From Bryum argenteum (Eukaryota; Streptophyta; Bryopsida; Bryales; Bryaceae): DNA of 64,000 bases. This document shows positions 214 through 57,772 of the stretch, one piece after another. Both the position numbers and the translations under genes were made by a program. Location of the stretch: NCBI GenBank assembly GCA_037043015.1, contig CM073325.1:3350501-3414500 (forward strand), given 5' to 3'. Under the pieces are notes generated by a model. The model was not told the DNA's origin, ran no database searches, and worked only from the letters and a program-made list of their open reading frames with translations. Within the stretch, counting starts at the first letter, position 1. The number at the start of each line of letters is the position of its first letter.

Positions 214-1403
214 CCCCTAAATTTCCTTGTTGTTTATGGAACCTTGAAACCTCAAAACTGCCATTTTCTAGCACTATGTACTCCTTGCGCTACGAGTCAG
301 ATTTTTTTACTTTATTTTGACTTCTAACCGTAAGATCTTGTACAAAAACCTAATTGGAAAAACTAATCTAAATTTCAACCGTTGGATGTTTGGCATTTGT
401 GAGATCATAACGTTCAAATTTACGACAAATGTTTTTTTGGGTATTGCCCGAGAGACAAAATGCAAAGGGCGAATTGTCCATGGTGCAAAGGGCGAATTGA
501 TGATGATTACCTCAAACATTTTGGTCACATTTTTTTTCATGTAGGTTTATGAGTTCTTCATGCTCATGCAAAAATTTGGAAACAGATTCCACTTTTAGAA
601 CCTTCACTAAAAATGTTTTCCAACTTAGGGTCTAAATTCTCTCATTAGAGTTGAAATATGAAAAAACTTGGTGGTATCTATAGAGTTTTGAATTTTGAAA
701 AAGTGAACGGTGAGAGGGTGCACTCATAGAATTGTGAATTTTGGGCACAACTTTTATTCAAAAATTTTAAAATCTCAATTTCTTATGAATTGTTTAAGGT
801 TTACAGTAAGAAAATTAGAAAAATAAGAAAGGGGCAGCCTTACAAAGTTGGACCCCTTATTAGCCCCACTACACCCTTTACATGCATTCATAAAAATATC
901 AAAGTAGATCTTGTTGTTACAACTGCAATGGCCTAAATTGGTCAAAATTGACTTACATTTATGGCATGTGTAAGTAAAATTCAGTCGTGGATAGTCCTAT
1001 GCGGAATACATTGAAATTACATTGAGATTGGTGCTAATCGATGGAGCATTTAGCAAGGCAGGTGAGCAGCCCCCATTTGCAGATCATAAGTTAGCCATAA
1101 CCCCCTTCTAAACCCCCTGCCCATGTCATATTTCTTCTCTCAAACCGCACGACTGCCCTATTTCTGACAGCAACCCCCATTGGCTTAGAGCCCCGCCCGT
1201 CTTGCCCCTTCTCGACTCCAAAACGAAATAATGCCATAGAAGTCATGAAAATGAGAATTTTACACCAAGATTTTTACCACATCTTCATCATGGAAATGCC
1301 CACCTCCGGTAAAAAAATTAGCAAAAAATATCAATTTTTACTACTTCACTTACGTTGCCCAAAACAACTAAAACCCGTTTTGGTTTTTAAGGAAACTTAG
1401 GGG
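214..1403. mobile_element. TTAA-flanked piggyBac-like non-autonomous element (long class)
   Basis: The left end is TTAA (210-213) followed by CCCCTAAATTTCCTTG. The right end reads as the complement of CCCCTAAGTTTCCTTA and is followed by TTGA (1404-1407), a one-base decay of the TTAA duplication. The interior carries a core shared with other copies in the window: an AACCGTAAGATCTTG motif, then CCGTTGGATG, then TGTGAGATCATAACGTTCAA near 400-420. No transposase is encoded. The short ORFs here on both strands lie inside the repeat core and are not genes. Confidence 0.72.
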
Positions 1404-2478
1404 TTGAGAATTTTTGTAAAATAGAGCTTCTAGCTTTCGTTTGAAAATATTTTATAGAAGATGAAAAGGTTAAGGAAGAGTGATTCATTTTTTCTTGATT
1501 TAAGCCCTGAACAACCGGAGTGTCGAAAAACAACATTTTGGATGAAGAGCAGAAATTCTGAAGAGGCATACTTCTTCATCTAGATTTCCTTACTGGTAAA
1601 ATCACTTAGATTGGGTAACAAATCAAGTCTAGTTTGTGAGGTACAAATTTTAAACCCAGAAAATAAAGTATGAATAAATGGCATGCACTTTAGTGGAGGC
1701 AGCTTTCACTTTTGGGTTTTTGAATAAAATGCATGTTTTACCATTCCAAGGCAATTATGTGAAATCAAAAAATATAATATAGTAAAAAAAATTAAAAATT
1801 GATTAGTTTAAGTAATTGTGATCTTTAAGTGCATCCAACAACGTTGTAGTAGGAAGATTTTTGATCAGGATAACTTTGGATTTGCAATGATGTTTCTAAA
1901 ATGAAAAAACGTGAAAAATATGAATGATATTTGAGGAGCTAGATCACTTTTATCCACCATTAGATTTTGACTTTACTTTTTTCGATATATTATAATTTAA
2001 GTCTAATATTAGTGGTAGAAACCTTACGCCAATCAAAGGAATATTGAAGATAAGACATGAAATTGAGTGCAAGGGGTCTAAATTTGGACTACTTCTTCTT
2101 TGTGAACTTATTGGTAGTTTCACCGTTGCAAAGCTTTAAGTTAAGCCAAGATATTTTTCTTATCAATTTTTTTGGTATTATAGTATGTTTGAGATGGAGA
2201 TGAACGACTTTCTACTTGGTGATCTTTTCATTGCAAATTTATTGTTGGTAGTATCTTCACTTCAAAGTGAAAATGATAGGTGAACCCACATATTGGTTAA
2301 GTATACTAGTAACTTTCTGGCTTTCAGAATTCATTGTAATTCATATATTGGAGTAAACATAAAAAATGAAGTTATACATTAACGTTTAAAACTCTATGAA
2401 GGAAATTCACCCTCCAGTAATACACCTTCCCTTTTGAATATTCTCTTTAATAACCGACTTCAGTTGCCTCCACCTTAA
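1404..2478. repeat. Degenerate copy of the 'GTCGAAAAACGACATT' repeat family
   Basis: From about 1515 to 2290 the sequence can be followed, with many changes, against better copies at 5481-6088 and 56804-57772. It shares the GTCGAAAAAC-ACATTTTGG block, the 'aaatcaagtctagttt' block, the 'gtatgaataaatggc' block and the 'cttcaaagtgaaaatgat' block. No clean TTAA ends are visible. There is no gene in this interval. Confidence 0.55.
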
Positions 2479-2703
2479 CCCTTAAAAGTCCCTTGGGGAT
2501 AGTATGTACGCTGTCGTATAATTAGGATTTGCTACCAACAAGAAACTCTAAAGTGAAATTGTAATAGCTCACTAGAACCACATTAATTCAAATGTCAACT
2601 TCTTCTTTGAGCTCAAACCCATTAAAGGTGTGCATTCACTCCAAATACAACAAAAATACACCGTATTCTACTGGTCGCCACGGCACGCTCAGACCTTTAG
2701 GGG
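2479..2703. mobile_element. Short TTAA-flanked piggyBac-like element (225 bp)
   Basis: TTAA at 2475-2478 is followed by CCCTTAAAAGTCCC. The other end is GACCTTTAGGGG followed by TTAA at 2704-2707. Ends and target duplication fit the TTAA family found across the window. The interior is not obviously related to the 361-bp or 260-bp classes. Confidence 0.65.
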
Positions 2704-2707
2704 TTAA

Positions 2708-5230
2708 GTTAGATTGTGTTTAGGGTATAGATAGTGTATTTCTTAGAGAAGAGAAAGTAATAGTACAGTATGATACTTCCCACATGCCTTGAAGTTATAG
2801 GTGTGGTGACGGATTCTCAAACACTTTATGCACCTTCACATACTAAAGTTCTCTCTAGATACCTTGAGATGAAAGGGCACTCAGTAACCCTACACTTCTC
2901 TTCAAGTAAGTTTTGCTACACAAAAGTTGTTACTAAGTGTTACACTAGTTAAGTCCGAACTGTAACACTTATGTCACAAGTCACCATAGTGTTACAACAC
3001 TAATCATCAAACCATGACACCAAATGTGAGAGCATGCAAACTTTCTTGCAAGTGGAAGATCTATTGAAAGTGGTGACTTGAAGAAAAGACAAGACACATT
3101 GATTGCAATGGCAGCCCAAATGTGAACACTAATCTCAAGAGAGCTAAGAATTTTTTTGGTCTTTACCAAACGTTACCTTAGCTTTTAGGTTGTTGTGACA
3201 CAGCAGAAATCTAATCTCAATCAGGAAACCCTTCCCAAAAGTGAAAGATACAATATTTGGTGTGAGAAGATACTTTCAGGTTTTAAGAAAATACTTCCAG
3301 AAAACAAGTCAAATTTAATGTCCAAATTGATTGCACGGATTGGTCCATGAGCCCCCAACGAGGAGTGCAGACTGATGCTATTCCCAAGGAAAGTGCTCTG
3401 GCGGTCTGGCCACCAGTCAGATCTATAAATTCCATTGAATTCAATGCCCTTAAGGAATGAAGTAACTTAAATACTCAACCCTTAATTGACAATTTGACAT
3501 CCTTGTTTTCCACAAATTGGAGAGAAATGCAACCTCATTGTCTTCTGGCCTTATTTCTGCACTGAAGGTAAAACAATTTTGAGAATCGGAAACGGTGGTT
3601 ATCAAGGTAACTTGGTGATGTGACCAATGCAAAAAAGATTGATCACATCGGATAAAATCTCAGAAAATGGCACCGTTGAGAAAAAAATGTTTTGGTTGCT
3701 GATCATGAGTGAGAAATATCCTATTTTTTCTGAAAATTGGCATCATAGAGCATGGTATAGGGATAAAGATCAAGATTTTTTATTATTTTGAAAAAAAACC
3801 GTCAAAAAAATAAAAAGAAAGGCCAAGTCAAAGAGCATTGACCATGGGATCACATGGCCCCTACAATTTCGCGCGGATCACACAAACCTCAAGAAGGCGA
3901 TTGGGAAGGAGCATTGGATTTGGAAAAACAAAAGAATAGGGGTGCCTTTGGACAAGATTTGCACCCTACCACTATGTTGGACCCCAAAAGCAAAAACAAT
4001 GACCTTGATGACCAGTTTGGTCACCGGTGACAATTAAGGGTTAAGGCCGGACATGAAAGCCATAGAGAGAGGGAACTGTCTAGATAATGGGTATCAACTC
4101 AAAAGGCGATATGTAAATTCCATAGCCGAGTGGCCTAAGTAGAAGAAAAACACCGTACCCTATGTGTTGGCGTAAATATAGTGTCCGTTTGGCCTACCCT
4201 ATATGATATAGGGTAGGCCAAACGGTTTGAGACTACTAAGTGGATATTCATGTACCCAACCTCTACGGTTGTGAGCAGAGTTGGGAGTTTGAGACTGAAT
4301 TTCCAATGTAAACAAGAGACTGGAGCAATTTGTAAAGGAACAAGAACTCCAACCCTATTTGAGACTGATGTAAATGGAGTGTCCGTTCAACATATCTTTG
4401 TATGCATGCCTAGAGGTCATGACACCAATAATGAGACTACTATCTCCTCTTGTCCAGAGTTGACATTGTGCTAGTTCATGTCTAGCACTTGTATCCGTGT
4501 CCCCGGACAAGACCGGTCTCTTTAATGTCATGACTCCCATCTTTATAATTTCACATCCGAACTCTTGTTTAGTAACTGTGAGACAATGTCACTAAAAATC
4601 ACCTTCATCAACCTACCCCCTAGTCCAACCGTCGTATATTTTTACCCTATCACTGTGTTGTCATAAGTGTCCCATCACCATAGAGCTTGACCACTATAGA
4701 CCCCGATCACCATGTAGGAGATCGAATTCTACCATTAATTCTACTAGATCTTGCACGTTTGAAGTCCACCCATTCGGAGCTTAACGATTTTTATGCTATG
4801 AATTAGTAAGCGTCTAGCTGCAAATTGGGCGGAGGTTTCATTAGTACGAAATTGCGTAATCTTTGCCAAACTAAAGTGACTTACTCCATTAGGACTTAGT
4901 GGAATTAAACACACTCGGTGAAGATCGTGGTATAAACCCTTCATGTTTCCACTACACAAGGGTTGTTGACTAGTGTTGGATTTGGAAATGCTATAATTTT
5001 TTACTTGTGACATAAATATTTACCAAAATCATTGACTCCAATAATATAGAAAGATCGGCATCTCAAACATTATTGTGTGAAAAAGTCGATGAACAGTAAA
5101 AACTCATGTGAATTACAGCTTCCAACACTAATCAACAACTCTTGTGTAGTATTTGCACACTCTTTTTCTTTAGTTTTTTAAATATAGTTTTGAACCAAAC
5201 ACATATTGAATTAATCATTTTGGCAATACA
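2708..5230. other. Intergenic, no gene recognised
   Basis: About 2.5 kb of AT-rich sequence with only short ORFs lacking any recognisable domain. It contains the perfect 41-bp palindrome described separately. A stretch near 4380-4450 (AGAGGTCATGACACCAATAA) has a diverged relative near 7325-7345, suggesting old dispersed repeats. Confidence 0.5.
4185..4225. repeat. Perfect 20-bp inverted repeat with 1-nt loop
   Basis: The left arm CCGTTTGGCCTACCCTATAT (4185-4204) is followed by a single G and then its exact reverse complement (4206-4225). Transcribed from either strand it would form a perfect 20-bp stem. No T-run follows, and no coding context explains it. Confidence 0.9.
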
Positions 5231-5234
5231 TTAA

Positions 5235-6105
5235 CCCCTAACTCTCCTTGTTGCAAAACGGTCTAAGTCACAAAATGTGACCTTCCTTTGGATTAAGCTC
5301 GAACAATCTCAATCCAAGCATTCTTTAAAAGATTCAACCGTAAGATCTCAAAGTTCACTTGACATTCTTCTCACATACCAAATTTGAACCGTTCATTCTT
5401 CCTCATTTGTAAAATTATAATGGTCAAAGTTGGCTGATTTTTTCTCCTACGGGAACCTCCAAACCCGATTCGGGTTTTAACCCTTAAGCGGGCCGAATGT
5501 CGAAAAACGACATTTTGGATGACACCAACTTTGGAGAGCCATAACTTCTTCATCCGGACTCCGTTTTGGACGAAATCACTTGGGTTGGGTCCCAAATCAA
5601 GTCTAGTTCATGTAATGAAAATCTCAGACCCATACAATGAAGTATGAATTAATGGCATGCATTTCAGTGACAGCAGCCTAGTTTTAGACATTTTTTCCTT
5701 TGTAAAATTTAGGGCAGTTTTCACCATTGCAGGGCCATAATTTGCACAAAGAAATTTTTCTCATGGTTTTTTTTTTGTTCAAGGATGCTACTGAGATGAA
5801 GGTGAACAACATTCTAATTGGTGACTTTTTCATTGCAATAAGTCTAATGGTAGCATTTTCACTTTAAAGTGAAAATGATGAAATTATGTGATCATTTTTG
5901 AGTATTAATACATTATGATCTCGCAATCTATGAAGCCTCATGACTCAAAATTTGACCCACATGATGTTCAATATGTCTACGACAAGATTGTACGGTTGAG
6001 ATTTGGATAACACACTTTTACCTCCACCTATGACAATGCTTTTGAGGATGTGTTCATTTTGCTACAAATGAGTCAAACCATTTAGGGGTTAAGGAGAGTT
6101 AGGGG
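5235..6105. mobile_element. TTAA element of the 259-bp class, interrupted by a nested element
   Basis: The left end is TTAA (5231-5234) then CCCCTAACTCTCCTTG. The right end is GGAGAGTTAGGGG then TTAA (6106-6109). Subtracting the nested element at 5481-6088 and one TTAA leaves 259 bp, the same size as the reverse-oriented uninterrupted copy at 45457-45715, which it matches along its length. This is a good internal control for the insertion. Confidence 0.85.
5481..6088. mobile_element. TTAA element ('GTCGAAAAACGACATT' class) nested in another TTAA element
   Basis: It starts CCCTTAAGCGGG after TTAA at 5477-5480 and ends CATTTAGGGG before TTAA at 6089-6092. The flanking bases on both sides belong to the host element, so both TTAA copies are the target duplication. 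The interior (GTCGAAAAACGACATTTTGG, then the 'caaatcaagtctagttc' block) matches 56804-57772 and several decayed copies. Confidence 0.85.
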
Positions 6106-6494
6106 TTAAGAACAAGACTAATCTCTCACTCCGCAAGTGAAGTGTTTACAGACTTTGAAGTGACATTCTTCATCCTCTTCGAGGTTACCGAATGGTCATC
6201 AAGCCCGTCGTCAACATCAGACCATAGGTAGTTGGCTCAAGGGTTCATGAAGTTTTCTGACTTTTATGAGCTAATAACCAACATTTCTCACACCCAATCG
6301 GTTTTTCACAGATCTCTTCCAAAAATTGCCTTATTTTACACTCAGAATATAGAAATTTATTTGTAATTTCAATCGGTTTCATAAATGGACCGACCACTGT
6401 GCTAAATCCATCGACTGATAATGAACTAGCCATCGGTTTTTCTCGATCATTGGTTGGCTCTACAGTTATGTGCATGTCTCATTTGCCGTTCTAA

Positions 6495-9154: not shown

Positions 9155-9665
9155 TTAGCAATATTAATACGGTCTCACTAAAGGATACGGATGGTCCAAG
9201 AGGAAAAGTACATACGGTTGGGCGTCGTCCTCGTCCGCGTCTCACCTTCTTCCTGTCTGGCTCCTACACCCTTTGCTTGGCTTTGGCTTCGCCTTTGCAG
9301 GCTGACATTGCTTTTTGCATGCATCAATCAAGCGCACGCAATCCCTTGACAAATCCCTTGCCTCGTCGCTTCCACTCATGTTGCTGACCCCGCTCGCTCC
9401 TTCTCCTTGTCCCGGTCAGCCCCACTTTCTTTTGCGCCATCCAATTCCGTAATTCGTTGTTGCCGTTTTGCTCGGATTGGCGCTTGGGAATGTAGGGTTA
9501 GTTGTGGATTCTGACCTTTGTTTGGATGCAGTCTATGGTGGTGGTCGCAATTGTGGATAGAAGATTGGGAAGATTGGGATTGAGCGTGGCGACCACATGA
9601 GTGGCAGGGTCTTTTGGAGGGCGCGGGCATTGGGGTGAGGTTGTAGCGCTCTGTGGCGTGCAGCT

Positions 9666-21983: not shown

Positions 21984-21987
21984 TTAA

Positions 21988-22572
21988 CCCCTAAAGATCC
22001 AAGAGGACCAGATCGGCATTTTGCTATTTTGGGCAGCTTAGAGCCTTAGACGAATAGGTTAAAAGTAATATTTTTGCCTAAATTTTGTAATGGGTGCTCC
22101 CTATACTGCAAAGTGTATGTGGGAAAATTTGCAAAGCCAAATTCCAATTTTTGAGTCTTTTACGACAATTCTTGGTTTGTGAGCCAAACTGGGGCAGTTT
22201 AAATTTAGTATTTTTTTGAGATTTTTTTTTGGAAATATGTTCATGATCAAATCACTACTTAGGTTCCAAACAGCCACAAGTCACAAAAAGTACCAATTTT
22301 ACAAGGGCAGCCTCCAAAAGTGTCAAAAATAATCTCAACAATGCCCAAAAAACTTCGTAGACAAACTTTGGATGTTATGATCTCTCAAATGGTAAACATC
22401 CAACGGTCAATTTTTGAATCAAATACTGAAGATTGGCTTAGGTACAAGATCTTACCGTTGGAAATTTAAAAAAGAATTAAAAATTTGTTTCGCACCCCTT
22501 GAAGTGCATAGAGGTAGAGAATTGGAGTTTTGAGGTTTCAAGCTCCCAAAAACACCCAAGGATCTTTAGGGG
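21988..22572. mobile_element. TTAA-flanked piggyBac-like element (585 bp)
   Basis: TTAA at 21984-21987 is followed by CCCCTAAAGATCCAAG. The right end AAGGATCTTTAGGGG is followed by TTAA at 22573-22576, giving inverted ends of about 15 bp. The reverse strand carries the shared core CCGTTGGATGTTTACCATTT. The 'gggcagcctccaaaa' and 'cactttgcagtata' blocks seen in 54949-55833 are also present. Confidence 0.85.
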
Positions 22573-22576
22573 TTAA

Positions 22577-27106: not shown

Positions 27107-27110
27107 TTAA

Positions 27111-27831
27111 CCCTTAAATGCCCAAGCAAGCCCGAGGGGCATAACAGAATCTTCCCTGTAGCTCTCATTGTACTCAACATTTCACTTATATTTTGATGTC
27201 AAATTGGTCAACTTCTTTTGATGCATTCGAAAAGTGAAATTTCACAATTTGAATCACAATTTGTATGAATGATTTTGTGCTTTGAATGGATTGTGGTAGG
27301 TAGGTTGGGGTTGTACATAACCTTGTAGGAGGTTGCAAGCTCATCATCGATTGGTCCATTCATGATGCCCAAGTTCAAAAAGTGCACTAATCATGATGCC
27401 CAAGTCCAAGAGTTGTTGTGATCCATTTTTGGGCTGCCCGTTTTAGACCCCATGGGCGTTTAACCCTTAAAGGCGCCTGTGAGCCCCTCGGGTTGTTTTC
27501 CATCAAAATCTTGCATGTAGCGCTTTTGATTCTCAATTTTTCACTTATTTTTTTATATCATTCTGGTCACCTTTTTGTGATGCATCTACAAAGTGAAATC
27601 CTACAATTCCAATCGCAATTTGTATGAGTGATTTGTGCTTTGAAAGGATTGTGGTAGGTAGGTTGGGATTGCACAAAACCTTGTAGGAGTTTGCAAACTC
27701 ATTATTGATTGGTTCATTCATGTTGCCTAAGTTCAAAAAGTGCACTATTCATGTTGCCCAAGTCCAAAAGATGTTGAGATCCAATTTCGGGCTGCCCATT
27801 GAGGAGTGGAAGGACCTTTAAGGGTTAAGGG
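27111..27831. mobile_element. 361-class TTAA element, interrupted by a nested copy
   Basis: TTAA at 27107-27110 precedes CCCTTAAATGCCC. The left part ends CCCCATGGGCGT and meets a new TTAA (27460-27463). After the nested element the last three bases GGG (27829-27831) and the outer TTAA (27832-27835) remain. The uninterrupted end CCCCATGGGCGTTTAAGGG is present in the copy at 37700-38061, proving where the cut occurred. The restored length would be 356 bp. Confidence 0.9.
27464..27824. mobile_element. 361-bp TTAA element nested in the terminus of another
   Basis: It begins CCCTTAAAGGCGCC after TTAA (27460-27463) and ends GGACCTTTAAGGG before TTAA (27825-27828). It lies exactly at the internal TTAA of the host's inverted repeat. 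It carries paired subterminal copies of 'gcccaagttcaaaa' and 'gcccaagtccaaaa' like every 361-class copy. Confidence 0.92.
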
Positions 27832-27835
27832 TTAA

Positions 27836-28174
27836 GCCTTGAACACCCTTGGGTCTGAGTCGGACAGCCCAAAATTGGATCATAGCATCTTTTGGACTTG
27901 GGCATCATAAATGAACCAATCACTGATGAGCTTGCAACCTCCTACAAGGTTATGTTCAATCCCAACCCAATCTACCTGCCACAATCCTCTCAAAGCACAA
28001 AATCACTTATACAAATTGTGATTTGAATTGTGAAATTTCACTTTTTGAATTCCTCATGAGAAGATGACGATGTTTGACATCAAAATATAAGTGAAAAATT
28101 GAGTTCAGTGAGAGCTATGGAGCAGATTCTCTTGAAAAAATGCCCCTCGGGCTTGCTTGAGCGTTTTAAAAGGA
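27836..28174. mobile_element. Decayed 361-class TTAA element, reverse orientation
   Basis: It abuts the preceding element, sharing TTAA 27832-27835. The body is the reverse complement of the 361-bp class ('gacttgggcatcat', 'cctcctacaaggtt', 'acaaattgtgatttgaa'). Its far end GCGTTTTAAAAGGATAAAA is a mutated GCGTTTAAGGGTTAA. Confidence 0.7.
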
Positions 28175-30464
28175 TAAAAAATTTGACACTAACAATGATT
28201 TTCTTGGCCGTGTTTCTTAGTCTAGTGTCTTAGACCCTAAACCTACCCAAATGTGCAAGTTGATGATAGATTTATTGGTTTATTAGAAGATGATCTAGAG
28301 ACTTCGAGTTGTATTATCTTGTAAGGTTCTAGTATGAGAAACTCCACAAGATTTTTATTTTTTTTCTTATTGTTTTCAATGTGTATTGGAAGACCTAAGC
28401 AATTGGTTAAAACTAGGCAATCAACACTTTTTGGGGAGCTGACTTTTAGCAAACAATATGACTTTGTAGAATGCCAAAAAATGCACCCTCTCTTGTAAAA
28501 TTATTGCTTTGAAGGGTGTACTTACCAATTTCAATCTCTTGGGATTATTTTGAAGGTTTACCAAAAAAATGATTAACCTTGGAATGGGCAAAGGTACTCA
28601 AAAACTCAACACTTTGTAATAAGTATAAAAATTACAATAATAGAGCTATCTTCAAAGAAACTCACATTCTCATTCCCTCTTTGATAATTTCTCTTGTATT
28701 TTTGAATTATACAAAAATCCAACTACTAAACTTAAATAAGCAAAAAAAAGATGATAAAAGGAATAATGACAAATAATTAAATGGCCATTTTAATAAAAAA
28801 GCATTTCACATACGATTGATTCTTGCCTAAAATCAATTGCTACTTCTTCAAAAAACACACCCCCAAAGTGAGGTGATCCTCACTTTTTGTGGTAATTTGA
28901 TCTCAAGCCTATAATTCTTCAATTTTGACTGCCATGCCCGCTTTTGATACAAGAGTGGCTACTCACCCACCTTCATCCCTAAACATTTCAACCTATTTTG
29001 AATCAAAAACATATTTTCACAAAAAATGTTATAGATGAAAAAGAGGTAAGCTATTTAGATCTTAACCGTACAAACTTGTAATAGACTTGTTGTAGGTCAT
29101 GTGGACCGATATTTGAGTCATAAGGTGCCATAAATTGTCAGATCGTTACGTAATAGCATGCAAAACAAGTTAAAAAAATTTAGGGTTGTCAAAATGGGCG
29201 AACTATTTCTCTACACAAGCAAATCTACCAAGTTAGCATTGACTAAAAATGAGTTGATTAAATCATCCAGTTTCTCACATTTTTCATTCTAGAAACATCA
29301 TTGCAAACCAAAAGTATTTGGATCAAAAATCTCTTCACCTAAAAAGTTGTTAAATGTTGTCTTATAATAATGATCATGTAAAAAGAAATTCATCAAAAAA
29401 TATCTTTGGCATCACATAATTGGCTTGCAATGTTATAACATATGTAATGTTTGAAAATTCAAAATCAAAAGCTGGCTTCACCAACTACACAAAATCACTT
29501 GCGTTGGGTCCTAAAGTTTTGACTGGTTCCTCAATTCTCAAAAGTTCTCTTCCAAATAATATTCTCCCTTTTTCTAGTGTGCATTGCATGAGATTGCTTG
29601 ATTATTAGGTCCTTGAACACCTATTTCGTTATAATGGGAATATTCAAATTATCAAATCGATGACAATTGAGCTTGAGTTGAGCAAAATGTACTCTGTGGG
29701 TACACTTAGCTCGACTCGAGCTAAACTCTAATTTCCCAAAATCAGTGAATGTTACCATTATAACGAAATACGTGTTCTTGGGAAGCTTATCTTGAGATTG
29801 TCACCTCGGAAAATGGGTAGATCACGCCAAAGTAGAGTTTTTGGGGGTGTGGCTCCTCATTGATATTTGACTTTTCCTCCGAATATCTCACTCAATAAAC
29901 CACTAGATGGTCCCATAGGAGGAACTAGGATGTCGATGCTCTAAGGGTACTTCAAGAATAACTCTATTGTACATATTTATCTCCATTATTCATCTCCTTT
30001 TATTACATGAATGCAAAGTCAATATGATCAATATGATCAATATGCAACACACTTGGGTAAGGGATTTACAAGGATCACAATGCATTAACAATTTCAGAAT
30101 AAGATATCTTCCCAGTTTCAACATTAATGACGAATGATTACAAAGTCCAAAAAGTAGGTGTCTATGTGAATTGTGACTTTCAAAGAAAGCAAATCTCGGA
30201 GAGGGCCTTCAATGAAAGAAAGCAAATTAAAAAAAGTTCACAGCGATAATATTGCTAAATTAGACTGTAAAGGAGCAGAATAGGGCATCTCTTGCTCAAA
30301 TTGAGGACAAAAATGGTTTGTTCGGAAGAGACGGCGATCAATATTCACCTCCTCAACGGTAGCAAGAATGCATTTGTTGAGTTATTTTTGAAAGCAACCG
30401 CCTGGATATGCACGCGCGGTCACTGGTGTATCTTGAAATAGTCAATGTATTATTGGAAGAGATG
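28175..30464. other. Intergenic with repeat remnants
   Basis: 28175-28950 is AT-rich with nothing recognised. 28960-29570 is a decayed reverse copy of the 56804-57772 family ('atcttaaccgtacaaacttg', 'cataaggtgccataaattg', 'cactagtgacttgcgttggg'-like blocks). A palindromic MITE lies at 29615-29777. 29780-30464 holds no supported gene. Confidence 0.5.
29615..29777. mobile_element. Palindromic 163-bp MITE
   Basis: The left end GAACACCTATTTCGTTATAA and the reverse complement of the right end (GAACACGTATTTCGTTATAA) match over about 30 bp with few differences. The centre contains the smaller palindrome AGCTCGACTCGAGCT. Target duplication is unclear (perhaps TT). The superfamily is not assigned. 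Confidence 0.6.
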
Positions 30465-32905: not shown

Positions 32906-32909
32906 TTAA

Positions 32910-33635
32910 CCCTTAAAGGCGCCTGTCAACCCCCCGGGCTGTTTTCCAACAAAATCTTGCATGTAGCTCTTTTGATTCTCAATTTTTCACTTATTTTTTT
33001 ATATCATTCTGGTCACCTTTTTGTAATGCATGTACAAAGTGAAATCCTACAATTCAAATCGCAATTTATATGAGTGATTTGGGCTTTGAAAGGATTGTGG
33101 TAGGTAGGTTGGGATTGCACAAAACCTTGTAGGAGGTTGCAAACTCATTATTGATTGGTTCATTCATGCTGCCCAAGTTCAAAAAGTGCACTATTCATGT
33201 TGCCCAAGTCCAAAAGATGCTGAGATCCAATTTCGGGCTGCTCATTGAGGAGTGGAAGGACCTTTAACCCTTAAACGGCCCTGTCAGCCCCTCGGGCTGT
33301 TTTCCTGCAAAATCTTCTCTGTAGCTCATTTGATTCTTCACTTTTTGCTTATATTTTTATATCATTGTGGTCACCTTCTTATGATGCATCCACATAGTAA
33401 AATTTCACAATCCAAATCACAATTTGTATGAGAGATATGTGATTTGAAAGGATTGTGGTAGGTAGGTTGGGGTTGCACAAAACCTTGTAGGAGGTTGCAA
33501 GCTCATCATTGATTGGTTCATTCATGATGCCCAAGTTCAAAAAGTGCACTATTCATGATGCCCAAGTCCAAAAGATGCTGAGATCCAATTTCGGGCTGCC
33601 CATTGGGGAGTGGAAGGCCATTTAAGGGTTAAGGA
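32910..33635. mobile_element. 361-class TTAA element interrupted by a nested copy
   Basis: TTAA 32906-32909 precedes CCCTTAAAGGCGCC. It is closely similar to 27464-27824. Its right end is split after GGAAGGACC at an internal TTAA (33264-33267). The residual terminal bases GGA (33633-33635) and outer TTAA (33636-33639) follow the insert. Removing the insert and one TTAA gives 361 bp. Confidence 0.88.
33268..33628. mobile_element. 361-bp TTAA element nested in another
   Basis: It runs from CCCTTAAACGGCCC to GGCCATTTAAGGG with TTAA on both sides (33264-33267, 33629-33632). It is nearly identical, in inverse orientation, to 34738-35098: the only difference I noted is in a CTGTCAG/CTCTCAG segment. 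Confidence 0.9.
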
Positions 33636-33640
33636 TTAAG

Positions 33641-34431: not shown

Positions 34432-34737
34432 ATCGCGATTGATGAAGGTGGGTCTCCACCGTTTTGTTTTTTGTTGAAAAATGGACGAGACAAGCAGGCT
34501 TTAAAACACTGGAACAGCGGGGGAGTCACTCGGCACAATGCCGATGGCGATGGCTTCGGACTCACTATGAGGTTCTACAGTAAAGTACAGTCCTGCACGA
34601 AGGGGTAGTGAGATAAATAGTACACAATCTGAATTTGACACAATCTGTATTTGGAATCTTAGGTGAAACACGCCTTTACTCGATCAAAGCGGTAACGGGT
34701 ATGGATTCTCCCCTTCCTACCCCGGATTGGGCTTTAA

Positions 34738-35098
34738 CCCTTAAATGGCCTTCCACTCCCCAATGGGCAGCCCGAAATTGGATCTCAGCATCTTTTGGAC
34801 TTGGGCATCATGAATAGTGCACTTTTTGAACTTGGGCATCATGAATGAACCAATCAATGATGAGCTTGCAACCTCCTACAAGGTTTTGTGCAACCCCAAC
34901 CTACCTACCACAATCCTTTCAAATCACATATCTCTCATACAAATTGTGATTTGGATTGTGAAATTTTACTATGTGGATGCATCATAAGAAGGTGACCACA
35001 ATGATATAAAAATATAAGCAAAAAGTGAAGAATCAAATGAGCTACAGAGAAGATTCTGCAGGAAAACAGCCCGAGGGGCTGAGAGGGCCGTTTAAGGG
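34738..35098 (-). mobile_element. 361-bp TTAA element, reverse orientation
   Basis: TTAA 34734-34737, CCCTTAAATGGCC to GGCCGTTTAAGGG, TTAA 35099-35102. It is the near-identical inverse of 33268-33628. Confidence 0.9.
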
Positions 35099-35102
35099 TT
35101 AA

Positions 35103-35463
35103 CCCTTAAACACCTAGCTATACGGATTTGGGCAGCCCAGTATTGGATCACAGCATCTTTTGCACTTGGGCATCATGAATAGTGCACTTTTTGAACTTGG
35201 GCATCATGGATGATCCAATCAATGATGTGCTTGCAACCTCCTACAAGTATTGTACAACCCCAACCTACCTACCACAATCCTTTCAAAGCACAAAATCACT
35301 CATACAAATTGTGATTTGAATTCTAAAATTTCACTTTTTGAATGCATCGCAGGAAGGTGACCAATTTGACATAAAAATATTAGTGAAAAGTTGAGTACAT
35401 TGAGAGCTACAGAGGAGATTCTGTTGGAACATGACCCCTCGGGTCACCTTCGGCGTTTAAGGG
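35103..35463 (-). mobile_element. 361-bp TTAA element directly abutting the previous
   Basis: It shares TTAA 35099-35102 with its neighbour, runs CCCTTAAACACC to GGCGTTTAAGGG, then TTAA 35464-35467. It is closest to the element at 51673-52033 in reverse (both have 'ctagctatacggatttggg'). The pair is flanked by an 18-bp direct repeat ATGGATTCTCCCCTTCCT (34701-34718 and 35468-35485). Confidence 0.9.
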
Positions 35464-35467
35464 TTAA

Positions 35468-37686: not shown

Positions 37687-37699
37687 TGATATAGCTTAA

Positions 37700-38061
37700 C
37701 CCTTAAACGCCCAAGAGAGCCCGAGGGGCTCTTTTCCAACAGACTCTCCTCTATAGCTCTCACTATAATGAATTTTTCACTTATATTTTGATGTCAAACT
37801 CGTCACCTCCTTGTGATGTATTCAAAAAGTGAAATTTTACAGTTTAAATCACAATTTGTATGAGTGATTTTGTGTTTTGAAAGGATTGTGGTAGGTAGGT
37901 TGGGGTTGTACCTAACCTTGTAGGAGGTTGCAAGCTCATTATTGATTGATTCACTCATGATGCCCAAGTTCAAAAAGTGCACTAATCATGATGCCCAAGT
38001 CCAAAAGATGTTGTGATTCAATTTTGGTCTGCCCGTTTCAAACCCCATGGGCGTTTAAGGG
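37700..38061 (+). mobile_element. 361-class TTAA element, intact reference copy (362 bp)
   Basis: TTAA 37696-37699, CCCTTAAACGCCC to GGGCGTTTAAGGG, TTAA 38062-38065. Inverted ends are perfect over the terminal 13 bases. This copy shows the uninterrupted terminus that is split in 27111-27831. Confidence 0.92.
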
Positions 38062-38114
38062 TTAATATGCTTTGTAAGAGTCGAACTGTGGAAGCGATTT
38101 GACGCTCGTACGGC

Positions 38115-44896: not shown

Positions 44897-44898
44897 TA

Positions 44899-45452: not shown

Positions 45453-45456
45453 TTAA

Positions 45457-45715
45457 CCCCTAACTCTTCTTACAACCCGAAACAGGTTTTGGAGGTTCCC
45501 GCAGGAGAAAAACTCAGCCAACTTTGACCATTATAATCTCACAAATGAGGAAGAATGAATGGTTCAAATTTGGTATGTGAGAAGAATGTCAAGTGAACTT
45601 TGAGATCTTACGGTTGAATCTTTCAAATAATGCTTGGATTGAGATATTTTGAGCTTAATCTAAGGGAAGGTGAAATTTGTGACTTCGACCGTTTTGCAAC
45701 AAGGAGAGTTAGGGG
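45457..45715 (-). mobile_element. 259-bp TTAA element, intact reference copy
   Basis: TTAA 45453-45456, CCCCTAACTCTTCTTACAAC to CAACAAGGAGAGTTAGGGG, TTAA 45716-45719. It is the uninterrupted counterpart of the element split at 5235-6105. Confidence 0.88.
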
Positions 45716-45869
45716 TTAATTACCTTCATTCTTGATACATTTCTCTAACATTTGATATATTGTTTGATTAAAAACAAAATGGCATATGTCATATTGAGGT
45801 TAGGGCTATGACTGAAAGAACGTTAAGTTAGGAACCTCTCTAAAAAGAAGCTACAAACAGGGATCAAGG

Positions 45870-48546: not shown

Positions 48547-48553
48547 TTATTAA

Positions 48554-48813
48554 CCCCTAAAGATCCAAGAAAGCCGAAATGGCTTTTTCGGATTTCCGCA
48601 GGAAAAAAATTCAGCCAAGTTTGACCATTATAATCTCAAAATTGGAGAAACATTAACGGTTCAAAATTGACATTCGAGTAAAGGGTCAAGTTAACTTCAA
48701 GATCCTACGGTTGGATCTTCTTTTGAATGCTTAGATTGAGTTTCTTTAGGTCTGAAGTACAAGGAGGTTCTTTTTGACAATTTAGACAATTTTGTATCAA
48801 GGATTTTTAGGGG
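48554..48813 (-). mobile_element. 260-bp TTAA element
   Basis: TTAA 48550-48553, CCCCTAAAGATCCAAG to CAAGGATTTTTAGGGG, TTAA 48814-48817. It follows the TTA duplication of the previous element by one base. The body carries the 'tgaccattataatctca' block of the 259-bp class. Confidence 0.88.
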
Positions 48814-48817
48814 TTAA

Positions 48818-50699: not shown

Positions 50700-50703
50700 T
50701 TAA

Positions 50704-50775
50704 CCCTTAAATGCCCAAGCATGCCCCTTGGGCATGTTTTTTAGTGTATTTTCAGAGGGGCTGGGTGTTTAAGGG
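50704..50775. mobile_element. 72-bp minimal TTAA element
   Basis: TTAA 50700-50703, CCCTTAAATGCCCAAGCA to GGTGTTTAAGGG, TTAA 50776-50779. Only the two ends and a short GC-rich stem (GCATGCCCC-TTGGGCATG) remain, apparently an internal deletion of the 361-bp class. If it moved in this form it defines a very small mobile unit. Confidence 0.82.
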
Positions 50776-50779
50776 TTAA

Positions 50780-52381: not shown

Positions 52382-53621
52382 TATATTTTTTAGTGTTAGG
52401 AGTACATGGGTATATACTAGTTGAAGTAGAATTGTTTATAGCAATATTGCTTGAATGACCTTTACACAATGAGGAAATTTGCCTCTTCAACCATGGTTGC
52501 TAGAGTACGAAAAACCTTTTCTTGCTTATGTCAGGAATCTTCCACATAAACACAATTTTCTTGTACTTTAAATGTTTTTCAATTTTTGTTGGTTTTGGGT
52601 GTTGTAACCATGAAAATAATCTTGTCTCATATAATCTTGGGCATAAATATGTATTGGAAATTGGAAAGTATGAGATTTTTCTTGGACTATGGATAATCAT
52701 GTCTGCAATCGAAATTCGGCAAGACTATCAATGATGGAATTTCTCCATGAAAGGGTAGGGGAAAATGTCTAGGGTTGGTTGTTGCTTCCATTACTCAAAG
52801 AGATAAGGTAGACTGCTCAAAATTGACTCAACACTAACAATAGCTCACTCGTACATTTTGACCACAAGTAAATAATAGATTCAAAGGCTAATTTTTCAAC
52901 CAATTGTGAAGATTTTAGGGTGTAGTATAGGGCACCATATTGGGAACACCTACAAGCTCAACTTCAAAAATGCATCAAACTTTTTATGAGAGTCTAAAAC
53001 TGATAATTTCACTTGATCTAGTCTCCCACTTGGTGTGATTTTAGACTAGGTTGTGATTGGTTTTAGAGTTGGGGCCGTTGAAATTGAGTTGCCTCATTGA
53101 TGTAAAAGTTAGGTCTGCATTAGCCCAATTGAGTAAACATTGAGAATGTGGACCAATATTATTTAATTCAAAGATATCTTATATAATTATTATGGCTATT
53201 ATTTGCACATGGCAACAAGCTTATCAATAAAGAGCTCTCAAGTGGTGAGCCATTTTGATTATCTGAGGACCATGTCAAGACATAAAACCCCTTGCATTAA
53301 TTAAGGGGTGGGGGCCTTGAAAATAAAAAATGGACTTTATTGGCCCTACAGTACTATGGCTCCTACCCGAGTCTAAACAGGCCCTTACTCTCCAATTGCA
53401 CAAAAAAACTCATATAGTAATTTCCATCATAATATCAATTGAAATTTAAGTCAATATTGAGCAATCCACCTTGATATGTTGTGAGAAACTTTTGTTTGAG
53501 TGTTTGCTTTGACAATCTAATAACAACATAAGTTAATCTTCAAGGTTACAAGAGGTTGGTATTGGGCCAATTTGGCTTTAGTCAGCCTTTGATTTTATAG
53601 ATTTACATTGCATGCAGTTAA

Positions 53622-53881
53622 CCCCTAAAGATCCACGATGTTTTGGGAGCTTGAAAACCCAACACTGACCACTATGTACTAATGGGGGTACGTCCAATGT
53701 TTTTGGAAATTTTTGATAATTTCAACCGTAGGATCTTGAAGTAGACTACCTTCAGTAGTAGTGTGAAAATTTTCAACTGTTGGATCATCACTATATGTGA
53801 GATCATAACATTTGAAGTTGATTGTAAATTTCTTTGGCCTTGAAGGTAAAAGCCGAATCGGTGGCCGTGGTCGTTTAGGGG
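53622..53881 (+). mobile_element. 260-bp TTAA element
   Basis: TTAA 53618-53621, CCCCTAAAGATCCACG to CGTGGTCGTTTAGGGG, TTAA 53882-53885. It carries the core 'caaccgtaggatcttgaag' and 'gagatcataacatttgaag'. Confidence 0.88.
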
Positions 53882-53898
53882 TTAAAGCCGTATATTAA

Positions 53899-54405
53899 CC
53901 CCTAAAAATCCAAGCGTTTTTTGGACTTCCAAGCCCAAAAACTGCGATTTTCTACCACCTTGTTCAAATTGAGACATGGTCAAATTTTTTATTGTTTATT
54001 TGTACTTTTAACCGTAAGATCTCAAACCTTCCTACTATCACTACTACCATGTGAAATTTCAATCCTTGGATCCTTATCATTTGTGAGATCGTAACATTCA
54101 AAGTTGGTGCAAAAGTTTTTTCGGGCATTGCTTGTGAGACATTGTTTCCATGGAGCAAAGAGAAAATTGAAGATTGTTACCCCAAACATACTTCCCATAT
54201 TTTTTTTCATATGGGTAATCAAGTTGGGTACGCTCATGCAAAATTTTGGAAACTCGTTCCATTTTTGTGACCTTCATGCAAATTATTTTGTAAAAGAAGG
54301 TCTAAAAACAACGATATAGTAAAACATGAGTTTCATTCGATATATTTGGCTTAATTAAAGATCCCAACGGCGAGTAGGTGCCTTTATGAGTTTGTGAAAT
54401 TTGAG

Positions 54406-54444
<39 letters not shown>

Positions 54445-54852
54445 AAAATTCCAAAACCTTAAATTTTGACAAATTTTGTAAGAGTTTATTCGGAAATTAC
54501 TAGAAATTGTGAAGATTGTTTTTGTAATTTTTGAGGGCTGCCCTTGTGAAATTGACAAACATTTTGACTTGGGTCACTTTGGAACTCAAGTGGTGATTTG
54601 TTCATGAACATATTTCCAAAAAAATAATTCAAAAAAAGACTAAATTTAAACTGCCCTTTTTGGACTTCAAACCTAAAATTTCTAGATGAAGGTTCTAAAA
54701 TTGGAATTTGGATTTGAAAATTTTACCACATGCACTTTGCGGTGTAAGGAGCACCCAGTAAAAATTTTAGGAAAAAATATTACTTTTAACCCCTTCATCT
54801 AGGCTGCCCGAAATAGGAAACCTCCACTTTGGTGGCCGTGGATCTTTAGGGG
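53899..54852 (+). mobile_element. 954-bp TTAA element with internal poly(A)
   Basis: TTAA 53895-53898, CCCCTAAAAATCCAAGCG to CGTGGATCTTTAGGGG, TTAA 54853-54856. It carries the shared core (AACCGTAAGATCTCAAACC, TCCTTGGATCC, TTTGTGAGATCGTAACATTC) and a 37-A run at 54406-54442. It begins 13 bp after the preceding element's TTAA. Confidence 0.86.
54406..54442. repeat. 37-nt homopolymeric A tract
   Basis: Uninterrupted A run inside a DNA element, not associated with a retroposed gene or target duplication. Confidence 0.95.
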
Positions 54853-54948
54853 TTAAGGGTTGTAGAGTTTTTGCATGCCTTTCTAAATAGTCCTTTTGTA
54901 CTTCAAAGTTCCTTATACTTTAGGAGAAATTCATAGTCAAAATTTTAA

Positions 54949-55833
54949 CCCCTAACTTTCCTTGAAGCCCGAAATGGGTTTTTGCAATTCCGGGCAGCCT
55001 AGATGAAGGGGTCAAAAGTAATATTTTTGCCTAAGAATTTTATCGAGTCCTCCTTATACTGCAAAGTGTATGTGGTAAAATTTGCAAAGTCAAACTCCAA
55101 TTTTTGAGTCTTCTAGGACGATCCTTGGGTTGCGAGCCGAGATGGGGCAGCTCAAAAAAGTAACTTTTTTGATTATTTTTTTAAAAAAAACGTGATCATT
55201 ACTAAATTGCTACTCAAATTTCAAAGTGACTCAAGTCAAAAAGTTTACCAATTTTACAAGGGCAGCCTCCAAAAAAATTTAAAACCAATCTTCGCAATAC
55301 CCAAAAAAACTCTACCTCTAAGCACTCGTGGGGGTGTAAACCAATTTCTATTCTTTTTTTAAAACTTCCAACCGTAAGATCTTGTACCTAAGAATATGCT
55401 TGATTACTCTTCAAAAAATTGACCGTTGGATGTTTACCATTTGAGAGATCGTAACATCCAAAGTTTGTCTCCCAAGTTTTTTTGGGTATTGCGAAGATTG
55501 GTTTTAAAATTTTTTGGAGGTTGCCCTTGTAAAATTGGTAAAATTTTTGACTTGAGTCACTTTGAAATTTGAGAAGTGATTTAGTAATGATCATGTTTCA
55601 AAAAAAATAATTTAAAAAGTTACTTTTTTGAGCTCCCCCATCTCGGCTCGCAACCCATGGATCGTCCTAGAAGACTCAAAAATTGGAATTTGACTTTGCA
55701 AATTTTACCACATACACTTTGCAGTATAAGGGGACCCGATAAAATTCTTAGGCAAAAATATTACTTTTAACCCCTTCATCTAGGCTGCCCGGAATTGCAA
55801 AAACCCATTTCGGGCTTCAAGTAAAGTTAGGGG
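54949..55833. mobile_element. 885-bp foldback TTAA element with about 370-bp arms
   Basis: TTAA 54945-54948, CCCCTAACTTTCCTTGAAGC to TTCAAGTAAAGTTAGGGG, TTAA 55834-55837. The left arm runs to about 55315 and the right arm starts at about 55480. They pair over almost their whole length with scattered mismatches ('gggcagcctagatgaagggg', 'cctaggacgatcc'-type, 'cgcaatacccaaaaaaactt' blocks). The loop, about 160 bp, holds the shared core CCGTTGGATGTTTACCATTT. Read-through transcription would give a long double-stranded RNA stem. Confidence 0.88.
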
Positions 55834-55837
55834 TTAA

Positions 55838-56799
55838 AACACTATCAGAGTATGGTGAAATTTGTCCAAATCCGCAGCATATGCTCATTCATTCTCAAAA
55901 TTTGTCAAAAATTAGTTCAATCACAAAATTTTAAAAGTTCACCAAAAACTGAGATTTTACTTTTTCCAGTTTTCCTCAAATAAAAATTAAAAATTAGAAA
56001 ATAATATACATATAAAAGAGATAATGAAGGACACTTTACGTGTTTGAGGAGTTAAGCCAAGCATGCAGCCAAAGAAGGGCAAAAATTCTCTCAATGTCAT
56101 TGGTCCATTACTTGTAGTTCAAAAACGAACCAATCACATTGAGAAAAAAATTCTCCTCATCGGCCCCATGTACGGCTTGACTCCTCATGCAAAGCGTCCC
56201 TAAGGCATAACTTCATTGCTCATATTTTCAATTTATTAATTTTTCATATGTATTATTTTCATTGTCAAATCATGCCTTTGTATTAAACTTCAACTACCTC
56301 CATGTGGAAATCAAGCATTTCTTTAGATTTTATGAGTCCTATGAGGGGTAAGAATTGCAAAGACATATTCCTAACCCATTGAAAAACAAGAATGTAAAGA
56401 TTTACTTTTTAAAATGGTCTTTTTGATTTCAAAATATTGCATTCCTTTTCCATAGTAAGGGAGGAAAACGTTTTTTCCAACTTTGAACATTATGATCTTA
56501 CCAAATGGTAAAAAATTTAAGTTCGAGATTTGGTGTACAGTACCCTCGAAGAAGTTTACATTTAGAGCTGAAACAAGAGAAGACGCTTCAATGTTGAAAC
56601 AATAACCATGCTCACAAAAATAATTTGAATTGCCAACTACAAATTGTATTACAAAGATAACGTAGTATTCTATACTTTCATTTGAAGTAATTCCAATGAA
56701 AATTTGAATTTCTACTTTAGTATATCACTTTAGTAACATATAATATAATATTTATCCTTAGCTCTTAATCCCTCTTATTGGGGGCTAACTATGCCGTTT
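55838..56799. other. Intergenic with one small foldback
   Basis: AT-rich. Apart from the foldback at 56029-56199 and a short TTAA-family core fragment (56465-56560, 'aacattatgatcttacc'), nothing is recognised. Confidence 0.4.
56029..56199. mobile_element. 171-bp foldback MITE
   Basis: The left part (GGACACTTTACGTG, GAGGAGTTAAGCCAAGCATG, 'tctctcaatgtcattggtcc') pairs with the right part ('accaatcacattgagaa', GTACGGCTTGACTCCTC, GCAAAGCGTCC). TAA follows the right end, but no matching left duplication is evident. Confidence 0.55.
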
Positions 56800-56803
56800 T
56801 TAA

Positions 56804-57772
56804 CCCCTAAACGTCCCTAGTGTCGAAAAACGACATTTTGGATGAAGGGCAGAAACTTTGAAGTGCCATAACTTCTTCATCCAAACTCCGTTTTTGACGA
56901 AATCACTTATGTTAGGTCACAAATCAAGTCTAGTTTATGTGGTAAAAATTGCAGACTCATAAAATAAAGTATGAATAAATGGCGTGGATTTTAGTGAAGG
57001 CAGCTTTTGTTTTTGGGTTTTCAAACATTTGGCATGTTTTACCATTGCAAGCCAATTATGTGAAATCTATAATAGTTTTTCACAAAATTTTTTCCTAGGT
57101 TTGATATTTAGATGCATCCCAACAACTTTGTAGTTGGAAGTTTTTTGATCTAGATAACTTTGGTATTGGCTTTGCAATGATGTTTCTACGATGAAAAAAG
57201 TGAAAAAATGGATGATTTTTGAAGAGCTAGATCTCCTTCATCCACAGTTAGATTTTGACTTTATTTTTTGGGATGGATTCCAATTATAGTTTATTTTTAG
57301 TGGTAGAAACCTTGACCCAATCGAGGATATATTGAAGAAAAGGCATGGATTTGAGTGCGAGGGGTCTAGTTTTGGACTATTTTTCCTTTGTAAAATTTTT
57401 GGCAGTTTCCACGACTACAACGCTACTATTTGAGCCAAGATTTTTTTTGATGAATTTTTTGGTACAAGAGTGTCTTTGAGATGAAGATGAACAACTTTCT
57501 AGTTGCTGATTTTTTGATTGCAAATTTCATGTTGGTAGTATTTTCACTTCAAAGTGGAAATGATGGTATTTTGTAGCCTGTTTTGCGCACTAATATGTTA
57601 TGATCTCGCAATCTATGAGGTCCCATGAGTCAAGTTTTGGTCCACATGATCTACTACAAGTCTATTACAAGTTTGTACGGTTGAGATCTGAATAGCTTAT
57701 CTTTATTTTCATATATATCACTTCTTTTGAAAATGAGTTTTTGGCTAAAAATACCCCAAGGACGTATAGGGG
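56804..57772 (+). mobile_element. 969-bp TTAA element, best copy of the 'GTCGAAAAACGACATT' class
   Basis: TTAA 56800-56803, CCCCTAAACGTCCC to GGACGTATAGGGG, TTAA 57773-57776: inverted ends of 13-14 bp. The interior begins GTGTCGAAAAACGACATTTT (itself a small palindrome) and is the reference for copies near 1515, 5481, 12641, 23310, 28960 and 58150. No reading frame of note. Confidence 0.87.

What the first reader, a model, noticed from the sequence alone, without database searches (positions are those of the whole stretch)
214..57772. A swarm of about 20 TTAA-bounded elements with CCCYTAAA termini, in two tightly fixed sizes
At least twenty segments begin TTAA|CCCYTAAA and end TTTARGGG|TTAA. 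Seven independent copies have an intact or restored length of 361-362 bp and four have 259-260 bp. TTAA duplication is the established signature of piggyBac-superfamily transposition. They occupy about 9.8 kb (15%) of the window. piggyBac MITEs at this density in a plant-like genome would be unusual, and the fixed lengths point to recent bursts from few masters.
Basis: partly seen in the sequence, partly recalled or inferred. Interest (0 to 1): 0.9.

Follow-up and report, generated by a model that had tools for sequence, protein, structure and literature searches.

The report
Native moss piggyBac transposon swarm
The short repeated segments are miniature offshoots of native piggyBac jumping genes in what is probably a moss; a full-size piggyBac element with a transposase gene lies beside them, and near-identical copies across the genome suggest that they jumped recently, which is unexpected in a land plant.

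Summary
The window has 29 exact TTAACCCYTAAA ends (shuffles 0.11). I place 24 elements; intact or restored, seven are 361-362 bp and four 259-260 bp. At 59210-64915, beyond the stated coordinates and the window end, lies a 5.7-kb piggyBac element: TTAA sites, 14-bp inverted ends, an 887-aa transposase frame (PF13843, E 4.9e-71) with the three catalytic Asp. A 4-kb piece of it has 37 scored matches printed as 100% identity. Of 63 exact left ends, 62 follow TTAA; the other has TTAT on both sides, so the duplication is 4 bp. A second autonomous family with CCCTTAAACGCCC ends resembles the 361-bp class beyond the inverted repeat; 36 of 42 reported 361-bp matches, the query included, are at least 99% identical. 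The host is probably a moss. New member of a known kind. Surprising: a young, large piggyBac expansion in a land plant, and an excess of insertions into the TTAA inside its own inverted repeats.

The parts
59210..64000 (-). Autonomous-type piggyBac element, 5.7 kb, window part (continues 915 bases past the window end, to window coordinate 64915); TTAA both sides, 14-bp inverted repeats CCCCTAAAGGCCCA
   Evidence: 37 scored matches of its 4-kb piece (itself included), printed as 100% identity
60742..63405 (-). Transposase main open frame, 887 aa; DDE_Tnp_1_7 domain at residues 396-778, catalytic D537/D628/D745, C-terminal Cys-rich tail
63406..63855 (-). Probable upstream exon of the transposase gene, same frame, separated by an intron-like stretch with GTGAGT donor and TACAG acceptor (splicing inferred, no RNA data)
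210..1407 (+). MITE related to the autonomous element (954-bp class); right end degraded
1500..2478 (+). ~970-bp-class MITE, degraded ends; right end inferred from the neighbouring element
2475..2707 (.). 225-bp MITE, one CCCTTAAA and one CCCCTAAA end
5231..6109 (.). 260-bp-class MITE (259 bp when the nested 5477-6092 element is set aside)
5477..6092 (+). 970-bp-class MITE with internal deletion (608 bp), nested in the 260-bp-class MITE; paralogous uninterrupted copy at 45453-45720
21984..22576 (.). 585-bp MITE; both ends match the autonomous element in the right polarity
27107..27835 (.). 361-class MITE (356 bp restored) interrupted in its right inverted repeat
27460..27828 (.). 361-bp MITE nested in the TTAA of that inverted repeat
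27832..28177 (.). degraded 361-class MITE, abutting
32906..33639 (.). 361-bp MITE (restored) interrupted in its right inverted repeat
33264..33632 (.). 361-bp MITE nested in that inverted repeat; 99.5% identical to 34734-35102
34734..35102 (.). 361-bp MITE; as query, 36 of 42 reported genome matches (itself included) are at least 99% identical
35099..35467 (.). 361-bp MITE sharing one TTAA with its neighbour
37696..38065 (.). 362-bp MITE
45453..45719 (.). 259-bp MITE
48550..48817 (.). 260-bp MITE; left end matches the right end of the autonomous element
50700..50779 (.). 72-bp MITE; its first 36 bases are 89% identical to the right end of the CCCTTAAA autonomous element in L035
51669..52037 (.). 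361-bp MITE (right end with one mismatch)
53618..53885 (.). 260-bp MITE
53895..54856 (+). 954-bp MITE; 74.6% identical to the first 404 bases of the autonomous element, right end also matches
54945..55837 (.). 885-bp composite or rearranged MITE of the 585/954 class
56800..57776 (+). 969-bp MITE; 40 scored genome copies (itself included) at 96% identity or more
58189..59081 (-). degraded 970-class MITE

Best explanation
The segments are miniature non-autonomous members (MITEs) of several piggyBac-superfamily families native to this (probably moss) genome. Full-size elements of 4.3-5.7 kb encode DDD transposases; the transposase is inferred to bind the CCC-starting inverted repeat and subterminal motifs, cut the element out at TTAA and reinsert it at another TTAA, which ends up on both sides. 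MITEs carry the ends but no transposase and are moved in trans: the CCCCTAAA class (260, 585 and 954 bp) by the 5.7-kb family of this window or close kin, the CCCTTAAA class (361, 72 bp) by a family like L035. Shown here: element boundaries, 4-bp target duplication, transposase domain and catalytic residues, match of several MITE ends with autonomous ends, near-identity of many dispersed copies. Inferred: present-day activity, mobilisation in trans, splicing of the transposase gene, seamless excision.
For: Complete element with TTAA, 14-bp inverted repeats and PF13843 frame; sequence and fold match to piggyBac 6x67 and piggyBat 9c0f; piggyBac D268/D346/D447 align to D537/D628/D745, D537 and D628 invariant and D745 at least 90% conserved among 26 sequences. 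Five copies read in full are 99.65-99.84% identical; L031-L034 share no match above 150 bases outside the element, and the printed flanks differ. 62 of 63 exact left termini follow TTAA; the 63rd (L033) has TTAT on both sides, which fixes the duplication at 4 bp. Paralogous empty sites: L013 MITE against L027 with one TTAA; nested 5477-6092 against 45453-45720; two 361-bp MITEs inserted in the TTAA of another's inverted repeat, with TTAA on both sides. Ends of the 954- and 585-bp MITEs match the 5.7-kb element left with left and right with right. 775 first-look PF13843 candidates, the best 116 scored, 93 of these without an internal stop by hand count (the window's own copy ranks below the 116).
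Against: No autonomous partner was found for the 970-bp class: four of its ends tested against seven autonomous ends gave nothing below p 0.037. For the 361 class some left-type ends match L036_L better than L035_L (37696R, 27460R), one of six right-type ends (27460L) does not match L035_R, and the p values are from 300 shuffles without correction for many comparisons, so the partner family is likely but not unique. All four empty-site comparisons between loci use paralogues at 71-92% identity, and in three of the four the empty copy has no intact TTAA. Three of five copies read (L032-L034) have the main frame ending at 831 aa, and the window copy differs locally from the other four, so not every copy is intact. 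No expression, population or excision data.
Confidence: 0.95

Rival explanations
1. MITEs of another TTAA-duplicating superfamily (Kolobok), only by chance resembling the piggyBac ends.
For: Kolobok elements are also linked with TTAA sites (recalled; a Kolobok paper with 23 mentions of TTAA was seen only in a search listing, PMC6004289). The 970-bp class has no identified partner here. No Kolobok transposase was searched for.
Against: The 5.7-kb element with the same kind of ends carries PF13843; 585/954-bp ends and one 260-bp end match it, and most 361-bp ends match a second PF13843 element.
Confidence: 0.02
2. TTAA is part of a longer inverted repeat and the real duplication is 2 bp (TA, mariner-like) or 3 bp (TTA, Harbinger-like).
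For: TTAA is palindromic and present on both sides of almost every copy, so boundaries are ambiguous from most copies alone.
Against: L033 carries TTAT on both sides: the fourth base changes together on both flanks, so it belongs to the target. The L027 empty site keeps a single TTAA. The transposase is piggyBac-type. Only one such TTAT copy was seen.
Confidence: 0.02
3. The swarm grew mainly by segmental or tandem duplication rather than transposition.
For: Abutting and nested copies are common (273 abutting pairs, 351 nested junctions genome-wide), and tandem arrays of piggyBac MITEs ascribed to replication slippage are reported in corals (PMC2872659, passages).
Against: Near-identical 361-bp copies lie on nine of the eleven large contigs, 38 of 42 rows with both ends complete; flanks of the full-size copies differ; of 20 nested junctions sampled (of 351), the 19 with readable outer flanks are all different (largest pairwise identity 0.47) and the inserted ends belong to several families.
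Confidence: 0.03
4. The sequences are contamination (for example an animal or fungus) in a plant assembly.
Against: The window lies in a 22.2-Mb contig and holds an EID1-like F-box gene whose best named hits are the mosses Ceratodon and Sphagnum; transposase hits and exact termini occur on all eleven large contigs.
Confidence: 0.02

Closest known systems
piggyBac superfamily (Trichoplusia ni piggyBac, PDB 6x67; piggyBat, PDB 9c0f)
   Same: DDE_Tnp_1_7 domain, DDD triad, C-terminal Cys-rich tail, TTAA duplication, short inverted repeats starting CCC
   Different: Probable moss host; 22% identity in the Foldseek match; long N-terminal region of low predicted confidence (residues 1-350), probable intron, 4.3-5.7-kb elements; one class begins CCCC rather than the CC[C/T]T motif quoted in PMC2872659
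Coral CMITEs with AmiPB1 (PMC2872659; passages)
   Same: piggyBac MITEs with TTAA, an autonomous relative sharing the ends and only weak internal similarity, adjacent and composite copies, one element made by a MITE insertion
   Different: Here the nested copies sampled have different flanks, as from independent insertion; insertion into the TTAA inside the inverted repeat itself; whole-genome count of about 23,000 exact ends
Pokey and mPok MITEs of Daphnia (PMC3849761, PMC4912750; search listing with abstract starts only)
   Same: piggyBac element with MITE partners
   Different: Pokey has a specific rDNA site; exact termini here lie on all eleven large contigs
Kolobok / T2-MITE (PMC6004289; search listing only)
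   Same: TTAA site
   Different: Different transposase (recalled); not searched for here

Membership tests
piggyBac superfamily | DDE_Tnp_1_7 (PF13843) transposase in an element with these ends | tested here: met
   E 4.9e-71, residues 396-778; the loci L035, L036 and L037 were chosen from PF13843 hits
piggyBac superfamily | DDD catalytic triad | tested here: met
   D537, D628, D745 aligned to piggyBac D268, D346, D447 (that these are the triad is recalled) and present in all four families
piggyBac superfamily | 4-bp TTAA target duplication | tested here: met
   62 of 63 termini follow TTAA; TTAT on both sides at L033; single TTAA at the L027 empty site; three other empty copies have a single, altered site
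piggyBac superfamily | 12-19-bp inverted repeats with CC[C/T]T motif (definition from PMC2872659) | tested here: inconclusive
   13-14-bp inverted repeats in three elements; CCCT in two of them, but CCCC in the 5.7-kb family, so length fits, CCC is kept and the fourth base differs
piggyBac superfamily | piggyBac transposase fold | tested here: met
   Foldseek top hits 6x67 E 7.3e-26 and 9c0f E 3.4e-24; model confident only from about residue 350 on, mean pLDDT 65.8
piggyBac superfamily | Seamless excision and active transposition | not testable with these tools
   needs alleles or an assay
MITE | Short, homogeneous length, high copy number, inverted repeats and duplicated site | tested here: met
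   seven of 361-362 bp and four of 259-260 bp in the window; 2,187 / 2,295 / 7,310 first-look candidates for the 361 / 260 / 970 queries, of which 40 each were scored
MITE | No coding capacity of its own | not tested
   MITE sequences were not themselves scanned against protein families; their length excludes a full transposase
Kolobok | Kolobok transposase in a partner element | not tested
   no Kolobok model was searched

The most novel reading that the evidence does not exclude
A land plant carries a currently mobile, native piggyBac system with at least four transposase families and over 20,000 exact ends, and its elements preferentially land in the TTAA embedded in the CCCTTAAA inverted repeats of their own kind, building nested composite units at several times the rate expected from random use of TTAA sites.
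Probability: 0.5. Interest if true: 0.72.

Novelty: new member of a known kind. Interest (0 to 1): 0.6.

Why it matters
piggyBac is used in plants as an insect-derived tool; [quoted passage not shown] A native plant piggyBac with near-identical copies would make it directly testable whether a plant has a seamless transposon of its own, would widen the known host range of young piggyBac expansions, and offers a natural system for MITE amplification with autonomous partner, MITE and empty site in one genome. I saw no description of a native moss piggyBac family in the listings of eight searches of the held library with a piggyBac term or of one on Hypnales genomes that returned nothing; I saw only the best 1 to 20 papers of each, so this is weak evidence. 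A fern genome table has a PiggyBac row with 1,230 entries (PMC6890710, one passage), so piggyBac annotations in plants are not wholly new.

Tried and rejected
Rejected: chance (shuffles); TA or TTA duplication (TTAT case); segmental duplication as the main route; contamination. A telomere link was considered because CCCCTAAA contains the plant telomere unit CCCTAAA (recalled); the 14 contig starts looked at showed no such array, but three of them begin with N, so this is no strong test. An autonomous partner of the 970-bp class was sought among seven ends of four families and not found. Rfam (gathering threshold) and tRNA scans of the window found nothing. Genome-wide counts of exact 361-bp and 260-bp pairs by a gapped pattern were never obtained.
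Full report
WHAT WAS CLAIMED AND WHAT IS THERE. The window has 17 left and 12 right exact TTAACCCYTAAA ends; shuffled sequence gives 0.11. Genome-wide the motif occurs 23,184 times against 401 for the reversed control: 8,992 with CCCTTAAA (control 229) and so 14,192 with CCCCTAAA. I place 24 elements in the window, the large one included and older fragments without clear ends left out. On another contig the same sizes recur: of 20 consecutive left/right CCCTTAAA pairs within 6.5 kb among the 100 listed ends on C1, five are 360-362 bp, five 234-235 bp and two 72 bp. Fourteen left/right pairs that I picked by eye from the C1 list include 260 bp once, 225 bp twice and 970-974 bp four times.

THE AUTONOMOUS ELEMENT. 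At 59210, running 915 bases past the window end, lies a 5.7-kb element: TTAA, CCCCTAAAGGCCCA, the body, the inverse end, TTAA. On its minus strand is an 887-aa open frame with DDE_Tnp_1_7 (E 4.9e-71). phmmer against PDB sequences finds piggyBat 9c0f (4.7e-23) and piggyBac 6x67 (6.8e-22) and no third sequence at 0.001 or below. The piggyBac residues D268, D346 and D447 (the triad as recalled) fall on D537, D628 and D745; a Cys-rich tail follows. An AlphaFold2 model is confident from about residue 350 on (mean pLDDT of the whole 65.8, residues 1-350 below 50), and its best PDB matches are 6x67 and 9c0f. A same-frame 149-aa stretch upstream runs into a GTGAGT donor, and the main frame begins around a TACAG acceptor, so the gene probably has an intron (inference).

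COPIES AND AGE. A 4-kb piece of it has 37 scored matches, itself included (244 first-look candidates), all printed as 100% identity and all but one covering 1-4001. Four further copies read in full are 99.65-99.84% identical to it and to each other; three have TTAA on both sides and L033 has TTAT. Their main frames differ: one of the four is open through the Cys-rich tail, three end at 831 aa, and the window copy differs locally from all four; these differences could be real or assembly errors. For the 361-bp MITE there were 2,187 first-look candidates, 40 scored, 42 rows: 38 cover all 369 bases including both TTAAs, and 36 are at least 99% identical, the query included (hand count). The 260-bp query gives more diverged copies (40 rows at 91-100%, 2 partial) and the 970-bp class lies between (40 rows at 96% or more, 9 partial; 7,310 candidates). 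The scored rows are the best candidates only. The window's own eight 361-class copies are 78-99.5% identical: the fixed length outlived several rounds.

TARGET SITE. Of 63 exact 25-base left termini of the 5.7-kb family, 62 follow TTAA. The exception, L033, has TTAT on the left and TTAT on the right; since the last base changes on both sides together, the duplication is the full 4 bp. Paralogous empty sites: a 974-bp MITE in L013 sits in a repeat whose other copy in L027 reads straight through with one TTAA. The 608-bp element at 5477-6092 sits in a 260-bp-class MITE whose copy at 45453-45720 is uninterrupted at 92% identity, but there the site reads TGTAA. The L035 element against window 57846-58166 (78%) and L036 against L023 (71%) are likewise uninterrupted, with the TTAA lost in the empty copy.

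FAMILIES AND PARTNERS. L035 holds a 5.2-kb element with CCCTTAAACGCCC ends and an 897-aa open frame; L036 a 4.3-kb element with CCCTTTATCGTCA ends and 994 aa; L037 a 1,077-aa frame with one CCCCTAAACGTCC end (the other not found). Transposases of the four families are 35-49% identical over the aligned parts. With the first 17 bases left out, the 954- and 585-bp MITE ends match the 5.7-kb element left with left and right with right (none of 300 shuffles reached the score); the 260-bp MITE at 48550 matches by its left end only, and the one at 53618 has no end match better than p 0.05, though BLAST finds inner similarity to the same element for both. Of the 361-bp class I tested 11 of 12 ends of six copies: five of six right-type ends match L035_R (p 0.013 or less) and one (27460L) does not; the five left-type ends match L035_L at p 0.000-0.067 but also L036_L at p 0.007-0.20. 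No correction for many comparisons was made. Four ends of the 970-bp class matched no tested end convincingly (lowest p 0.037).

NESTING. The CCCTTAAA repeat contains a TTAA. Two 361-bp MITEs in the window are inserted exactly there in another 361-class element. Genome-wide the junction of such an insertion occurs 351 times (control 0), and abutting elements sharing one TTAA occur at 273 places (control 0; the pattern is its own complement, so both strands count the same places). I read 20 junctions from C2 and C3 (of 351): in 18 the inner side matches an element end held in my loci and in 2 it matches nothing there; 19 have a readable outer flank, all different (largest pairwise identity 0.47), and one was read for only two bases. 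With TTAA density from three samples, random use of today's TTAA sites would give about 71-106 insertions in the inverted-repeat TTAA and 184-274 abutting pairs. So abutting pairs fit chance, while insertions inside the inverted repeat are at least threefold in excess. The estimate is rough: density comes from about 220 kb, 11,592 elements (half the exact ends) are assumed, and neither local hot spots nor TTAA context was controlled.

HOST. The F-box frame at 9639-10511 has as best named hits Ceratodon purpureus (63% identity) and Sphagnum, then other land plants, many named phytochrome A-associated F-box protein; unnamed database proteins reach 73%. The genome has 258.8 Mb with eleven contigs above 6.9 Mb. 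A moss is likely; the species is not known.

KNOWN OR NEW. In the way it works and in membership this is piggyBac: the features that could be tested were met, except that the fourth terminal base of the CCCC class departs from the quoted CC[C/T]T motif (PMC2872659, passages). MITEs with TTAA, and composite copies, are known from corals (same paper). A native, young and abundant piggyBac system in a moss is what I did not see described in the listings of my searches; a paper on expressed transposons of Physcomitrium has no occurrence of piggyBac (PMC7466625, count in the listing; passages). Absence from these listings is weak evidence.

Noticed in passing
G000 contig C1 (44.1 Mb, 17% of the genome): Poor in these elements: 0 of 42 rows for the 361-bp query, 0 of 37 for the 5.7-kb element, 0 of 49 for the 970-bp query, 3 of 42 for the 260-bp query, 1 of 63 exact termini, 5 of 116 PF13843 hits. 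Perhaps a sex chromosome, heterochromatin, or a difference in masking.
   Followed up: partly
42105-42663 and 44341-44899: Perfect 559-base inverted repeat, 1,677 bases apart, with ends GTACAGTGGGGTACC; similar GTACAATACCC ends flank a 375-base inverted repeat in L009 (8154-9160), and a 33-base TGTACAGTACCC pair surrounds the L035 piggyBac element: perhaps another transposon group with long inverted repeats.
   Followed up: partly
34197-34434 and 47502-47739: 97% identical inverted pair of 238 bases; not matched by the TTAA-element references.
   Followed up: no
7923-8120: Three tandem 66-base units; the other two are 86% and 88% identical to the first.
   Followed up: no
18506-21139: 877-aa open frame rich in Cys and Pro, no Pfam match at E 0.001.
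   Followed up: no
25298-25864: Open frame with an alpha/beta-hydrolase domain, probably one exon of a gene.
   Followed up: no
2475-2707: 225-bp element with one CCCTTAAA and one CCCCTAAA end; two 225-bp pairs with one end of each class also stand in the C1 list, which suggests a family that bridges the two classes.
   Followed up: partly
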